A DNA stretch of 64,000 nt from Lachnospiraceae bacterium. GTDB lineage: Bacteria > Bacillota > Clostridia > Lachnospirales > Lachnospiraceae. A program made the position numbers and the translations under genes. The notes under the pieces are model-generated. The model had not been told where the DNA came from, ran no database searches, and saw nothing but the letters and a program-made list of their open reading frames with translations. Positions within the stretch are counted from its first letter, which is position 1, and the number at the start of each line of letters is the position of its first letter. Below, in pieces: positions 281 through 16,275 of this stretch. The stretch spans positions 1-64,000 of the forward strand of contig JAIKXM010000026.1 of NCBI GenBank assembly GCA_024684085.1, in the 5' to 3' direction.

Positions 281-341
281 ACAAGGGCTGGTCATATGAC
301 CCGGGTCCAACGAAGTGGTGTGGGTGTCCCACACCTTTTTT
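281..341 (+). ncRNA. Structured RNA / terminator-like leader upstream of DUF3800 gene
   Basis: GGTCATATGACC palindrome (290-301), then perfect 8-bp hairpin GGTGTGGG-TGT-CCCACACC (317-335) followed by T6; directly upstream of a DUF3800 ORF. Confidence 0.5.
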
Positions 342-949: not shown

Positions 950-1006
950 GTTCGTGAGGGTGGTAGAACAGTAGGTTCTGGTAGAGTAGCTTCAATCATC
1001 GAGTAA
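950..1006 (+). pseudogene. 3'-end fragment of an elongation factor Tu gene
   Basis: GTT CGT GAG ... GAG TAA encodes VREGGRTVGSGRVASIIE*, matching the conserved EF-Tu C-terminus (xREGGRTVGSGxVxxIxE); an in-frame TAA precedes it, with no tuf body upstream. Confidence 0.8.
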
Positions 1007-1173: not shown

Positions 1174-1202
1174 TTGACTTTCCGCCTTACACTTACTACA
1201 AT
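1174..1202 (+). promoter_or_regulatory. Sigma-A-like promoter for the repeat RNA
   Basis: TTGACT (1174-1179), 17-nt spacer, TACAAT (1197-1202); expected start about 1209, just before the first repeat at 1214. Confidence 0.65.
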
Positions 1203-1208
1203 GAAATT

Positions 1209-1345
1209 AATAAGAAAGTATACCACTGACCGATATGTGGTATATAAATGGTCGGGTTGAAAGTTTACCGCTGACCAATATGCGGAATATAAATGATTGG
1301 GTCGAAAGTATAGTCCTTCGCCGAGAGGCGGAGGACTATTTCCGT
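1209..1345 (+). ncRNA. Tandem pseudoknot RNA, type III antitoxin-like (CptI-like), upstream of jetABCD
   Basis: Two 45-nt repeats (1214-1258, 1259-1303), a third repeat start (1304-1311), then a hairpin; P1 and P2 pairings supported by compensatory differences between units. Confidence 0.65.
1310..1342 (+). terminator. Strong GNRA-capped hairpin ending the repeat RNA
   Basis: ATAGTCCTTCGCC-GAGA-GGCGGAGGACTAT, 13-bp stem with one G-U, followed by a short T run. Confidence 0.55.
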
Positions 1346-1397: not shown

Positions 1398-2855
1398 TTG
1401 TATCATATTATCGGTGAGAACTTCTTTGTTCCGCTTGCTTCTCCGAATAAAACTGTATATTGGGAATGTATTTGTAAGCTGTTTTCCGTTATGGATCATC
1501 AGCTTTCTTTTGGTGTTGAAAGAGATGTGCTGGTGGAGGAATTGCAGTATTACTTCGAACAGACTCAGGCCGCAGATATTAAAGAGGATGAATTGTCCGG
1601 GAAAACTGCAAGAGATAAGGCCAATTGGATGATCCGTAAGTTGGAAGCTTATGGCTGGATAGATATCGAAACCGATAAAAGCTATGTGCAGAGGGTGAAC
1701 TTCAAGGAGCACGCGGTAAAGGTGGTCAAGACCCTCTTGGAGATAACCGAAGGGAAGCGTATCGAATATCAGGGATATATCTATACCATCTATACCCTGG
1801 TCAGAACGAATACAGATAATCCCGGTGTTGTTCTTCTGTCTATCGTGGAGAACACAGATATGCTGATCACGGGCTTGAAGAATCTAAGCTCCAGTATAAA
1901 GAATTATATTGATGAGCTTACCAAGTATAGAACGCCCGCCGAGATCATGAATGTTCTGTTTAATGATTACATTGAGAATATTGTGGATAAGGCATATCAT
2001 CGTCTCCTCACTTCCGATAATGTATCTAAGTTCAGACCTGAGATAATAGAAAGGCTGGAGTCTAAGAGCAGGAGTCCTCAATATATTGAAAAAGCAAGTG
2101 AAGATCTTGCCGGAATCCGTGAGATATCCAAAGAGGATGCAAGGGAACTGGCGTATCATTATATACATCAGGTCCTGGAAGCTTTTCATAATATGGACGA
2201 TATCCTGTCCGAGATCAATTACAAGAATACACAATATCAGCGCGCGGCTATCAATCGTGCCAAATTCTATCTGATCGGCGGAGAAGATGTCAGGGGGCAG
2301 TTGAAGGAACTACTTACGGATATGAGTGATCGGATCCTTGCAGACAATATGGATCTGGCAGGTATATATCGGATTGAATATATTGATGAATTGATCCGAC
2401 TCTACAGTGTATCTGTGATCGATGAAAAATCTCTGTATACTCCAATAGAAGGTAAGAAAACATTCACGCCGTCGGCACTTATTGATGAAGATGTCGATCT
2501 GGCTCTTAGGAATGATAAATTGCAACGAATGATGGAGAAGCTAGCCAGAGTATTGAGCCCGGAGCGTGTTGGGGCATATGTGGATCAGCAGTTAGGTGAC
2601 AAAAAGCGAATGATGGCATCGCAATTGCCGCTTGATACAGTGGAGGATTATGTAAAACTGATCTATATCAGGTTATATGGGCAGCGAAAGAATATGGAGT
2701 ATTCGATCGTGCTCCACGAAGACGAAAAGGGAAAAAATGACCGGGAAAGGGTTAATGCTCCGGAGAAAGGGAATCGATTTGAATCCAACGAACAAGTAAG
2801 GCAAAAAGGGTATTATTTTCAGGACTTTGAAATAGTCAGAAAGGAAACCAAATAA
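1398..2855 (+). CDS. jetA: Wadjet JetA-like protein
   Basis: 485 aa, TTG start with AAGGAG seven nt upstream; first gene of a jetABCD-order operon with SMC-like JetC and Toprim-like JetD. Confidence 0.8.
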   Translation: MYHIIGENFFVPLASPNKTVYWECICKLFSVMDHQLSFGVERDVLVEELQYYFEQTQAADIKEDELSGKTARDKANWMIRKLEAYGWIDIETDKSYVQRVNFKEHAVKVVKTLLEITEGKRIEYQGYIYTIYTLVRTNTDNPGVVLLSIVENTDMLITGLKNLSSSIKNYIDELTKYRTPAEIMNVLFNDYIENIVDKAYHRLLTSDNVSKFRPEIIERLESKSRSPQYIEKASEDLAGIREISKEDARELAYHYIHQVLEAFHNMDDILSEINYKNTQYQRAAINRAKFYLIGGEDVRGQLKELLTDMSDRILADNMDLAGIYRIEYIDELIRLYSVSVIDEKSLYTPIEGKKTFTPSALIDEDVDLALRNDKLQRMMEKLARVLSPERVGAYVDQQLGDKKRMMASQLPLDTVEDYVKLIYIRLYGQRKNMEYSIVLHEDEKGKNDRERVNAPEKGNRFESNEQVRQKGYYFQDFEIVRKETK

Positions 2856-2857
2856 AA

Positions 2858-3472
2858 ATGGATTATTTGGAAGGTATGTTGCAGAAGGAAAAGGCGGAGT
2901 TCTCAAGAATATGTAACCGTCTCTTATCCAGCTGTTTCTTATGTAAGCGTAATGAAACGACCAAGCCGGATTATTATTTTGTGATCAAACATCGTGAGAA
3001 GTTCTCGGATTATCTATCTCTTATGGGATATCGCCTTGAGATCAATGAAGGATATGGAGTTATACAGCTTACGAATCCCATGAATTATAACAGATATAAT
3101 CTCAAGCTGTTTGAATCGATAATATTGCTGATACTTAGGATCCTCTATGATGAGAAGAGGAGAGAACTGTCGGTATCGGACGAAGTGATCGTGAATGTAG
3201 GTGATATTCACGACAAGTTTTTAAGTCTTAAGATCAGGGACAAGATGATCGACAAGACGACAATGCGTAATGCGATAAGTACATTAAGGCGCTTCCAGCT
3301 TATTGAGACATTGGATCGTGATCTGACCAATGAAGACAGCAGGATCCTCATCTTTGATTCTATCCTGATGGCAGTCAGGGTGGAAGATATCAAAAAAGCA
3401 TGCGAGAAGCTCGAAATATACCGGAAAGGAGAGAAGGAAAGTGAAGAGATTGACGAGAGTGAAATTGATTAA
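2858..3472 (+). CDS. jetB: Wadjet JetB-like protein
   Basis: 204 aa, small protein between JetA and the SMC-like ATPase; overlaps jetC by 32 nt. Confidence 0.8.
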   Translation: MDYLEGMLQKEKAEFSRICNRLLSSCFLCKRNETTKPDYYFVIKHREKFSDYLSLMGYRLEINEGYGVIQLTNPMNYNRYNLKLFESIILLILRILYDEKRRELSVSDEVIVNVGDIHDKFLSLKIRDKMIDKTTMRNAISTLRRFQLIETLDRDLTNEDSRILIFDSILMAVRVEDIKKACEKLEIYRKGEKESEEIDESEID

Positions 3473-6400
3473 CTGGCATCGTTTCACCAATACATATGTC
3501 GATTTTGAAGACTCCACTTTGATCTCCGGAGAAAACGGGGCAGGTAAGTCTACCCTTCTTGATGCAATTCAATTTGTGGTAACGTGTTCTACCAATCATT
3601 TCAATAAGGCCGCTCATGAGAACGGCAAGAGAAAGCTTACGGGTTATATCCGCTGTAAGACAGGCAAAGAGAACAGGCCTTATGAGAGAACCGGTGAGAT
3701 AAGCGCCCATGTTGCATTGGAGTTCTATGAGGAAAAGCGAGATAAGTATTTTATTGTAGGCGCTGTGGTGGATTCGGCTTCTGAGGGTCAGGAGAAGACC
3801 GTTCGATATCTGATAGACGGACAGAGACTGAATGACGATCTTTTTTTCAACGGAAAGGTGCCAAAGTCGATCAATCAGTTCCGCACTACCAATGCTAAAG
3901 AGATCCGGCAGTGGTGCAATACCGAAAAAGAAGCTAAATCTATGATGAAAAATCGATTCGGAAGACTGGAGGATAAATTCTTCCGATTGATACCGAAGGC
4001 TTTGGCATTCAGACCTATAGATGATATTAAGGATTTTGTGTATTCTTATGTTCTTGATGAAAAAGAAGTCAATATTGATGTTCTGAGGGAGAATGTGCGT
4101 ACATATCAGGATCTTCAGCGAACACTGGAAGATGTGAAGGTGCGTATAGGCAAGTTGGACAGAATATTCAAGGCACATGAATCAGTGGTTGATGGCCTGG
4201 AAAAAGATAAGATGTACGAATATTTCCTTGCACGTATTGATGCGGATCTGACTAAGGAAGAGATCAGGGGATTGGCGGATGAGATACGTGCCGATGAGAT
4301 TCGTCGGGGAGATCATAATAAGGAATTGGCGGCAGTCAGAAGAGAACAGGATGAGAAGCAACAGATCCGGGATGACATTCGAACGGAGCTGGCCGGTGAT
4401 AAGGACTTTATAGCGAGGGATGAACAGGAGAAAAAACTTAGGGAGCTTCAGCGGGATAATGAGGAACTCCTTAAGGAGAGGGAGGACCTGGAGAGAAGTG
4501 TAGCCAAGGCCAGAGAACAGGCAAGAAACCTGTTGGAGATTAAGGATATCGACGACTCAGTCCGCGTATATTATGAACAGCTGGGTGATCTTGAGAAAAA
4601 AGAGCAGCTGTCGGAAGTTAAGAATAATCTTCAGCATGTTATCACATATAAGGCGGAGAAGTGGAACCAACTGATCTTGCAGAGGCAGAAGCTCAGCGAT
4701 CAGATCAGCCTGGATGAACAGGAGAGACATGAACTGGAACTTAAGGCAGACAATCTTAAGCGAAAAAGGTTCTCTTATCCTCCCGATGTTGAACGTGTGA
4801 TGACTGCGATCAGAGATGAGTTCAATCGAATAGGGAGAACTCCCGCACCCAGAATATTATGCGAGCTTTTGGAGATTACGGATGATTCATGGCGTAATGC
4901 AGTTGAGGGATATCTGAATACTCAGCGATTCTATATTCTGGTCGAGCCGGAGAATTTTGATATCGCATTGGGTACATACGACAATTTGCGTAGGGAGAAG
5001 AAGGCTTTTGGAGTTGGTCTGATCAATACGCAGCAGTTGGATGCATATGACTCGGCGCCGGAGATGTCTCTTGCCACTGTGGTCACATCGAAGAATAAAT
5101 ATGCTAAGCGTTATATTAATATGATCCTTGGGAAGGTCACTATGTGTGACACTTATCAGGAATTGAAGAAGCATAAGACTGCCATTACCAGGGAGTGTAT
5201 GCGTTATCAAAATCATGTGGCCAGTGCCATAAAGCCTGAGATATTTGAGACTCCTTACATAGGTCAGAATGCTATAAAGGTTCAGCTGGAACAGACCAAT
5301 GTCAGGATTGCTTCATTGAAGGAACATCTGAAGGATCTGGCAGGGCGAAGCACTACTATAGATTCGGTGCTGGAGCAGCTTACAACGGAATATGATACTG
5401 ATATCAAGTATCGTATTGATGTCCTGGCAGAGCTTCGTCAGAATGTTGCCGAGATACAAAAGTGTAAAGATAATATTGCTGCACTGGAGAAGAACTCCAA
5501 TATGATCCAGAAGCAGATTCAGTTGTCCGATCTGGAGACTATTCTGAAAGAGTTGGGTATAAAAAGCAGTTCTTTTGAGCGTATGATCGGCCAGACTGAT
5601 CAGAGGATCGCTATCAATAATGAACGACTTAAGCTTAAACAGGCGGATCTGGATACATTAACGGTTAATTATCTCGAGATAGGTTCCAGGGCAGGCACAC
5701 AGAGTGTTATCTGGGATAAGGAATATGAGAAGAGATTAACAGAGCGATCCAATTCCGAGTTCAAAGATAATTATCTCAGGGCTCGTAAGGCTAATCAGAC
5801 CAAAATCGGAGATGCGGAAGCTGTAATGAAGGAGTCCATGACGGAATATAAAACGGCGCATGATTTCGGCGCGGCGGCAACTATGGAGGGTTATCCCGAT
5901 TTCGAGTGTGAATTGGTCAAATTAAAAGATTCGGAACTACTGCAGTATGAGGAGAAGGTAGAGTCTGCGAGACAGGCCGCGGAAGAAGAATTCAGAGAAC
6001 AGTTCCTGTCAAAACTTCAGGAGAATATGAAGACGGCGCAGAGTGAATTCAAGAATCTGAATAATGCGCTTCAGGATATCCTGTTCAGCAATGAGCGATA
6101 TGAATTCTTATATATGCCAAGTAAAAAGTATCGTCAGTATTATGAGATGATCATGGATGATTTTAACGCTACTCAGGGGGAGTCTATTTTCAGCGGTATT
6201 TTCCATGAGACTCATAAAGCCGTGATCGAGGAATTGTTCGAACGTCTGGCCTTGGATAATGATAATACCGCTAAGGCACTGGATGAATTCACAGATTATC
6301 GGACTTATATGGATTATGATATCCGTATTTTTCACAGTGACAATAATTATTCGCTGTATTCCAAGGTCTGTGAGGAGAAGAGCGGCGGTGAGACACAGAC

Positions 6401-6683
6401 GCCTTTCTATGTTACAGTGGCGGCCTCTTTTGTACAGCTCTATCGCAATAATATCGGCGGTGAGGCGATCGGACTCGTAATGTTCGATGAGGCCTTCAAT
6501 AATATGGATGATGAGAGGATCGGTGGAGTATTGCAGTTCCTGCGCAAGCTCCCTCTGCAGATTCTGATCGCTGCTCCGCCGGATAAGATCCAGTATATCA
6601 GTCCGGCAGTCGAGGAGACGCTTTTGGTCATGACAGATGAGAAAGTAAGTTTTGTGGAGAGATACATTAATGGCTCGATATGA
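3441..6683 (+). CDS. jetC: Wadjet JetC, SMC/MukB-like ATPase
   Basis: Walker A GENGAGKST, long coiled-coil middle, signature KSGGE, Walker B LVMFDEAFNNMD. Confidence 0.92.
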   Translation: MKRLTRVKLINWHRFTNTYVDFEDSTLISGENGAGKSTLLDAIQFVVTCSTNHFNKAAHENGKRKLTGYIRCKTGKENRPYERTGEISAHVALEFYEEKRDKYFIVGAVVDSASEGQEKTVRYLIDGQRLNDDLFFNGKVPKSINQFRTTNAKEIRQWCNTEKEAKSMMKNRFGRLEDKFFRLIPKALAFRPIDDIKDFVYSYVLDEKEVNIDVLRENVRTYQDLQRTLEDVKVRIGKLDRIFKAHESVVDGLEKDKMYEYFLARIDADLTKEEIRGLADEIRADEIRRGDHNKELAAVRREQDEKQQIRDDIRTELAGDKDFIARDEQEKKLRELQRDNEELLKEREDLERSVAKAREQARNLLEIKDIDDSVRVYYEQLGDLEKKEQLSEVKNNLQHVITYKAEKWNQLILQRQKLSDQISLDEQERHELELKADNLKRKRFSYPPDVERVMTAIRDEFNRIGRTPAPRILCELLEITDDSWRNAVEGYLNTQRFYILVEPENFDIALGTYDNLRREKKAFGVGLINTQQLDAYDSAPEMSLATVVTSKNKYAKRYINMILGKVTMCDTYQELKKHKTAITRECMRYQNHVASAIKPEIFETPYIGQNAIKVQLEQTNVRIASLKEHLKDLAGRSTTIDSVLEQLTTEYDTDIKYRIDVLAELRQNVAEIQKCKDNIAALEKNSNMIQKQIQLSDLETILKELGIKSSSFERMIGQTDQRIAINNERLKLKQADLDTLTVNYLEIGSRAGTQSVIWDKEYEKRLTERSNSEFKDNYLRARKANQTKIGDAEAVMKESMTEYKTAHDFGAAATMEGYPDFECELVKLKDSELLQYEEKVESARQAAEEEFREQFLSKLQENMKTAQSEFKNLNNALQDILFSNERYEFLYMPSKKYRQYYEMIMDDFNATQGESIFSGIFHETHKAVIEELFERLALDNDNTAKALDEFTDYRTYMDYDIRIFHSDNNYSLYSKVCEEKSGGETQTPFYVTVAASFVQLYRNNIGGEAIGLVMFDEAFNNMDDERIGGVLQFLRKLPLQILIAAPPDKIQYISPAVEETLLVMTDEKVSFVERYINGSI

Positions 6684-15882: not shown

Positions 15883-16087
15883 AGTCTAAATTTCTCCTTT
15901 TTTAATATATGTTTATAGTGTTTGTTGAGTTCTGATCAGTGTTCGGAAGCTTGTTGATAATACAAGCTTCACTAATTACGAATGGTATCAAATAGTTAGG
16001 TGTGAGTCAATGCCTATATGTAATATTTAACATACAGTTGAAAGGTCGCGGGAATTGTGATATCGTAAAGTGAGTTGAATATTTAGC

Positions 16088-16275
16088 AAACAGGTGTCTG
16101 AAGGGAATGGTATAAGACATTCAGCTTCAGGTGAAAAGGGAAACAGGTGTGAATCCTGTACGAACTCGTCACCGTATTTAGGGAGTATCAGCCGATATAT
16201 CACTGGGAGACCGGGAAGATGGCGAAATGCAATGATCTATGAGCCGGGAGACCTGCCTGCTTGCTGTACGGAAGC
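16088..16275 (+). promoter_or_regulatory. Cobalamin riboswitch
   Basis: AAAAGGGAAACAGGTGTGAATCCTGTACGAACTCGTCACCGT and AGCCGGGAGACCTGCC B12-box elements upstream of a cobalamin locus. Confidence 0.92.

What the first reader, a model, noticed from the sequence alone, without database searches (positions are those of the whole stretch)
1209..1345. Two 45-nt tandem repeats folding as H-type pseudoknots, with covariation between units
Unit 1 (1214-1258) GAAAGTATACCACTGACCGATATGTGGTATATAAATGGTCGGGTT and unit 2 (1259-1303) GAAAGTTTACCGCTGACCAATATGCGGAATATAAATGATTGGGTC are both exactly 45 nt, and a third unit begins at 1304 (GAAAGTATA). P1 pairs unit positions 9-13 with 24-28 (in unit 2 the outermost pair, 9/28, is an A-A mismatch). 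P2 pairs loop positions 15-21 with 38-45 with one bulged G. Of the 8 differences between units, 6 preserve pairing: 12/25 A-U to G-C, 19/40 G-C to A-U, 38 G-U to A-U, 45 G-U to G-C. That is strong within-sequence evidence for a selected RNA fold. Type III antitoxins (ToxI, AntiQ, CptI, TenpI) are tandem pseudoknot RNAs with repeats in this size range, and from memory the CptI unit is about 45 nt.
Basis: partly seen in the sequence, partly recalled or inferred. Interest (0 to 1): 0.85.

Follow-up and report, generated by a model that had tools for sequence, protein, structure and literature searches.

The report
Orphan CptI antitoxin heading Wadjet operon
Two folded RNA repeats in a Lachnospiraceae-family bacterium are the antidote half of a known toxin-antidote system (CptIN); the toxin gene has been deleted and the anti-plasmid Wadjet defence operon now sits in its place, and the same antidote RNA, without its toxin, also turns up in many contigs classed as phage.

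Summary
The repeats are real. They are CptI, the RNA antitoxin of the type III toxin-antitoxin system CptIN, Eubacterium rectale subtype: unit 1 differs at one base from the crystallised E. rectale CptI, and about twenty sampled genomes carry the same array followed by cptN. Here the toxin is gone. cptN is cut after its first eight codons (1361-1385) and joined to the ribosome-binding site of jetA, first gene of an intact type I Wadjet operon. The CptI promoter is retained, both pseudoknots are conserved, and the terminator's U-tract is interrupted. No CptN was found in the genome (86% complete) or in 19 others of its genus. Best reading: a deletion orphaned the antitoxin and placed Wadjet behind the CptI promoter. 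Whether the RNA still works as an antitoxin in trans is untested, but its key residues survive.

Following the same RNA into IMG/VR gave a broader result: 22 contigs carry CptI units, of several stem-2 types, with no CptN. Half lie near tRNA genes and some hold tandem units of different type. This suggests antitoxin decoys used by phages, although CptIN has never been shown to act against phage. Identity is firm; the functions are inferred.

The parts
1174..1202 (+). CptI promoter, TTGACT-17-TACAAT
   Evidence: 10 of 12 consensus matches; a like promoter (TTGACTTTCC..CTTRCTAGAAT) stands at the same place in most intact CptIN loci
1214..1258 (+). CptI pseudoknot unit 1 (processed form by analogy 1216-1260)
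   Evidence: 1 mismatch to the crystallised CptI_Er unit; pseudoknot scan; covariance model 75 bits
1259..1303 (+). CptI pseudoknot unit 2 (processed form by analogy 1261-1305)
   Evidence: belongs to the family's second-unit variants, 2 mismatches to nearest relative; A29/U30 equivalents kept
1310..1339 (+). 13-bp terminator-type hairpin; U-tract interrupted (GGACTATTTCC)
   Evidence: -23.1 kcal/mol; relatives have GGACTTTTTCC; no terminator called in the window, one called in L089
1349..1385 (+). cptN remnant: Shine-Dalgarno plus first 8 codons (TTG AAA AAA ACA GGT TTT TAT ATT), start codon TTG where relatives have ATG
   Evidence: coding part same as the L088 cptN 5' end up to 1385 apart from the start codon
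1384..1385 (.). deletion junction, cptN to jetA leader, about 2 nt of microhomology
   Evidence: nucleotide homology to jetA leaders of L002/L003 starts at 1384; cptN homology stops at 1385
1398..2855 (+). jetA (Wadjet type I)
   Evidence: PADLOC 6e-163, Pfam JetA 1.8e-112
2858..3472 (+). jetB
   Evidence: PADLOC JetB1 5.5e-80
3441..6683 (+). jetC
   Evidence: PADLOC JetC1 1127 bits
6652..7932 (+). jetD
   Evidence: PADLOC JetD1 7.6e-112

Best explanation
The repeats are a CptI antitoxin RNA gene whose partner toxin gene cptN was deleted. The deletion joined the eighth codon of cptN to the ribosome-binding site of jetA, so the CptI promoter and leader are now the main promoter region seen directly upstream of an intact Wadjet operon. 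Transcription should start near 1209, make two 45-nt pseudoknots, meet the hairpin at 1310-1339, and, because the U-tract is broken, read through into jetABCD more often than an intact CptIN locus reads into its toxin. Shown here: homology to CptI, loss of cptN, the junction, intact Wadjet genes, retained pseudoknots and promoter, altered U-tract. Inferred: transcription, read-through, and that the RNA can still neutralise a CptN supplied from outside.
For: Unit 1 matches published CptI_Er at 44/45. About twenty sampled genomes carry the same array followed by cptN. The cptN 5' fragment is conserved up to 1385 and jetA-leader homology starts at 1384. The CptN profile NF047359 finds nothing in the genome or in 19 further genus members. 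jetA-D are complete. In the other arrays with this terminator the stem is followed by at least four T; the window alone has TATTT. Essential A29 and kink U30 (PMC4627078) are kept in both units. Other arrays with lost or broken cptN exist (L128, L138, L134), so loss of the toxin before the antitoxin is recurrent.
Against: No expression data. The genome is a draft (85.7% complete, 46 contigs) and the locus lies 1.2 kb from the contig start. None of the other jetA loci examined (77 loci) has an adjacent CptI, so the arrangement is seen once. A weak promoter-like match at 1377-1406 could serve jetA instead.
Confidence: 0.75

Rival explanations
1. Relic: the CptI array is a decaying leftover with no current role; Wadjet is transcribed by some other signal.
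For: Decayed orphan arrays exist; L134 has lost promoter, terminator and the kink U. ATG to TTG at the cptN start fits relaxed selection.
Against: Promoter and both pseudoknots are near consensus, and the change at position 38 of unit 2 (G to A) keeps pairing. No better jetA promoter is seen.
Confidence: 0.3
2. Anti-addiction: the orphan CptI is kept because it neutralises CptN carried by plasmids or other elements that Wadjet destroys, sparing the host from post-segregational killing.
For: CptIN_Er stabilises a plasmid in E. coli (PMC4627078, PMC5086642). A single CptI unit is fully antitoxic. Wadjet is an anti-plasmid system. CptN relatives occur on six plasmids.
Against: Seen once. No plasmid in PLSDB carries this CptI subtype and the plasmid CptN relatives are below 50% identity. 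CptI does not cross-neutralise between the subtypes tested (PMC4627078).
Confidence: 0.15
3. Assembly chimera joining a CptIN locus to a Wadjet locus.
For: Draft assembly; junction near a contig end.
Against: Only about 2 nt are shared at the junction, too little for a k-mer assembler to bridge. A substitution in the U-tract and one in the start codon argue for evolution after the loss.
Confidence: 0.06
4. CptN is encoded elsewhere in the genome and the antitoxin acts on it in trans.
For: About 14% of the genome is missing.
Against: No CptN in the assembly or in 19 other genus genomes. The only type III toxin relative found is an internally deleted ToxN-like gene, which is another family.
Confidence: 0.05

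Closest known systems
CptIN of Eubacterium rectale (type III toxin-antitoxin; PMC4627078, PDB 4RMO)
   Same: 45-nt unit (44/45 identical), two units, same pseudoknot, same GAAAG junctions, same promoter and terminator layout as its relatives, same first codons of cptN
   Different: cptN deleted; jetABCD follows; terminator U-tract interrupted
Wadjet type I (jetABCD)
   Same: all four genes intact, same family as nearby Lachnospiraceae loci
   Different: usual jetA promoter region replaced by the CptI promoter and repeats; not seen in the other jetA loci examined
PhiTE pseudo-ToxI (phage antitoxin mimic; PMC3475682)
   Same: antitoxin-like RNA without its toxin
   Different: that is a phage and the ToxI family; the viral contigs found here carry the CptI family, usually as one full unit and often near tRNA genes

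Membership tests
CptI (type III antitoxin, CptIN family) | tandem repeats of a 45-nt H-type pseudoknot | tested here: met
CptI (type III antitoxin, CptIN family) | sequence match to a characterised CptI, with residues essential for antitoxicity (A29, U30) kept | tested here: met
   44/45 to CptI_Er; A29 and U30 equivalents kept in both units
CptI (type III antitoxin, CptIN family) | promoter upstream of the repeats | tested here: met
   (sequence match only, not function)
CptI (type III antitoxin, CptIN family) | intrinsic terminator directly after the repeats | tested here: inconclusive
   hairpin kept and strong, U-tract interrupted
CptIN (complete toxin-antitoxin system) | cptN toxin gene directly downstream | tested here: not met
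   only 8 codons left; no CptN in the genome
CptI (type III antitoxin, CptIN family) | RNA neutralises CptN and is cut by it into monomers | not testable with these tools
   needs the E. coli toxicity assay of PMC4627078
Wadjet type I | intact jetA, jetB, jetC, jetD in one operon | tested here: met

The most novel reading that the evidence does not exclude
CptI can be a stand-alone, trans-acting antitoxin decoy. In phages, single or mixed CptI units of several specificities, often near tRNA genes, disarm host CptIN; this would show that CptIN is an anti-phage system, which has never been demonstrated. In this bacterium the same kind of orphan antitoxin leads the anti-plasmid operon Wadjet and may spare cells the CptN toxin of elements that Wadjet removes. 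The phage half is the better supported: 22 viral contigs with CptI units and no CptN.
Probability: 0.5. Interest if true: 0.82.

Novelty: new variant of a known kind. Interest (0 to 1): 0.6.

Why it matters
[quoted passage not shown] Tracing the same RNA through viral contigs gives a testable lead on an open question. CptIN has never been shown to act against phages (PMC5086642), yet contigs classed as phage carry CptI units without the toxin, several near tRNA genes and some as tandem units with different stem 2 sequences. If these neutralise host CptN, they would be a natural, multi-specific RNA counter-defence.

Tried and rejected
Rfam: no convincing match to the repeats even at E up to 10. 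Conserved leader of Wadjet: rejected, because upstream regions of other jetA loci hold no CptI by eye, regular expression or covariance model (best hits there E 0.02 and 0.8, taken as chance). Second copy in the own genome: none. Match in a genus relative G306: spurious 35-nt hit. CptI in PLSDB plasmids or INPHARED phages: none; one marginal hit in phage PhiPA3 at E 1 was not pursued. CptN in viral contigs from one protein: none, later corrected by DNA patterns and the profile. First pair count on the viral alignment used a register wrong by one column and was redone. Two of the 24 hits of the loosest viral pattern (L169, L170) lack a convincing stem 2 and were dropped as chance.

Full report
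Observation. The apparent third unit is only its first nine bases, which run into a 13-bp hairpin at 1310-1339 (-23.1 kcal/mol, z -6.3). Both units form an H-type pseudoknot with an A-rich third loop.

Identity. The profile for the CptIN toxin (NF047359) found cptN in 23 of 196 relatives, not in the window's genome. Upstream of several of those cptN genes stand repeats nearly identical to the window's. The published E. rectale CptI unit, read from primer CptI-WT in PMC4627078, differs from unit 1 at one base. That RNA was crystallised with CptN as a 45-nt H-type pseudoknot, and one unit is fully antitoxic. The residues whose mutation abolishes antitoxicity, A29 and kink U30, are present in both window units. 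Across 33 distinct related units the pseudoknot pairs covary (96.7% paired; score 0.249 against 0.149 shuffled and at most 0.063 slid).

What is missing. In 397 family genomes BLAST finds about thirty substantial arrays; most are followed by cptN. In the window, cptN ends after TTG AAA AAA ACA GGT TTT TAT ATT A (1361-1385). Nucleotide homology to the jetA leader of the nearest Wadjet relatives L002 and L003 starts at 1384. The two join with about two shared bases. Downstream lie complete jetA, jetB, jetC and jetD. No CptN was found in the genome, which is 85.7% complete, or in 19 further genus members.

What is kept and what has changed. The promoter TTGACT-17-TACAAT at 1174-1202 resembles the CptI promoter of the family. 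Both units remain near consensus. The terminator stem is kept, even lengthened, but its U-tract reads TATTT where every relative with this terminator has at least four T in a row; the simple scan calls a terminator in L089 but none in the window. The cptN start codon is TTG. These changes fit a locus in which termination before the next gene no longer matters or is disfavoured, because the next gene is now jetA. Transcription and read-through are inferred, not shown.

Is it recurrent? Orphan arrays occur elsewhere: L128 (cptN reduced to fragments), L138 (one unit, cptN stump) and L134 (decayed, kink U lost). So loss of the toxin before the antitoxin recurs, as expected if losing the antitoxin first is lethal. 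The link to Wadjet was seen only here: none of the 77 other jetA loci examined.

Wider result: CptI without CptN in viral contigs. Scans of IMG/VR with CptI patterns gave 26 contigs with units that look genuine. The CptN profile over the whole contigs finds CptN in four (L148, L150, L152, L167), each with tandem units, and in none of the other 22. Many records may be fragments, so absence is not proof. The 22 are not all independent: L153 and L154, L164/L165/L168, L158 and L160, L147 and L151, L162 and L163 look like pairs or groups of relatives, leaving roughly 15 lineages. In 11 of the 22 a tRNA gene lies within about 600 nt, for example L145 (directly after tRNA-Asn), L157 (between tRNA-Ala and tRNA-Met/Pro/Ser/Thr), and L147 and L151 (before tRNA-Ser); none of the four contigs with CptN has a tRNA in the fetched DNA. 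The 19 distinct orphan units covary strongly (90.9% paired; score 0.403 against 0.221 shuffled and at most 0.136 slid), with different stem 2 sequences such as GACCGAT, ACTCGAT, AGCCGAT, CCCCAGT and ACCCGGC. The patterns fixed part of stem 1 and of the loop, but not the stem 2 partners that vary. Three groups hold tandem units of different type: L144 (two clear, two possible), L161 (two) and L162/L163 (three). Flanking genes of several contigs match phage families, such as exonuclease, DnaB-like helicase, terminase-like and anti-repressor proteins; L146 sits beside serine recombinases and may be another mobile element. For the rest, phage identity rests on IMG/VR alone. The likeliest reading is an antitoxin decoy, as PhiTE pseudo-ToxI is for ToxIN (PMC3475682). 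CptIN has shown no anti-phage activity in the two systems tested (PMC5086642), so such decoys would argue that it has one. No paper describing CptI decoys was found in the held library, which lacks most subscription journals.

Verdict. Identity as CptI: about 0.97. Orphaning by cptN deletion with jetA fused behind: about 0.9, limited by the draft assembly. Wadjet driven by the CptI promoter: about 0.65. Residual antitoxin role in this bacterium: about 0.3. Decoy role in phages: about 0.7.

Noticed in passing
L144:807-974, L145:14650-14696, L147:734-780, L151:4064-4110, L153:7617-7663, L155 around 2190-2240, L157 around 1605-1660, L158:11032-11078, L161:1110-1200, L162:5215-5370, L164/L165/L168, L146, L149, L156, L159, L160, L163, L166, L171: CptI antitoxin units without CptN in 22 IMG/VR contigs, half near tRNA genes, several stem-2 types and some mixed tandem units; likely phage antitoxin decoys.
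   Followed up: yes
window 953-1006; L003:149-204 and 2322-2418; L006, L009, L010, L011, L051: A copy of the last 17 codons of the EF-Tu gene (tuf) lies upstream of jetA in several Lachnospiraceae, twice in L003, which suggests that elements carrying Wadjet integrate at the 3' end of tuf; L136 has a whole tuf about 200 nt before a CptI array.
   Followed up: partly
window 284-332 and 358-807: DUF3800-XI RNA (Rfam RF02975, 38.2 bits) followed by a short DUF3800-like gene that matches Pfam DUF3800 just under its cut-off and appears internally shortened (149 aa); possibly another broken element in the same island.
   Followed up: partly
G000 contig C41:8928-9257 (L172): ToxN-like toxin gene missing its middle (profile positions 57-101) with no repeats found nearby: a second broken type III toxin in this genome.
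   Followed up: partly
L133 (G210): A CptI array whose units are separated by about 250 nt of other sequence while cptN stays intact.
   Followed up: no
window 16075-16274: Cobalamin riboswitch (Rfam, 103 bits).
   Followed up: no
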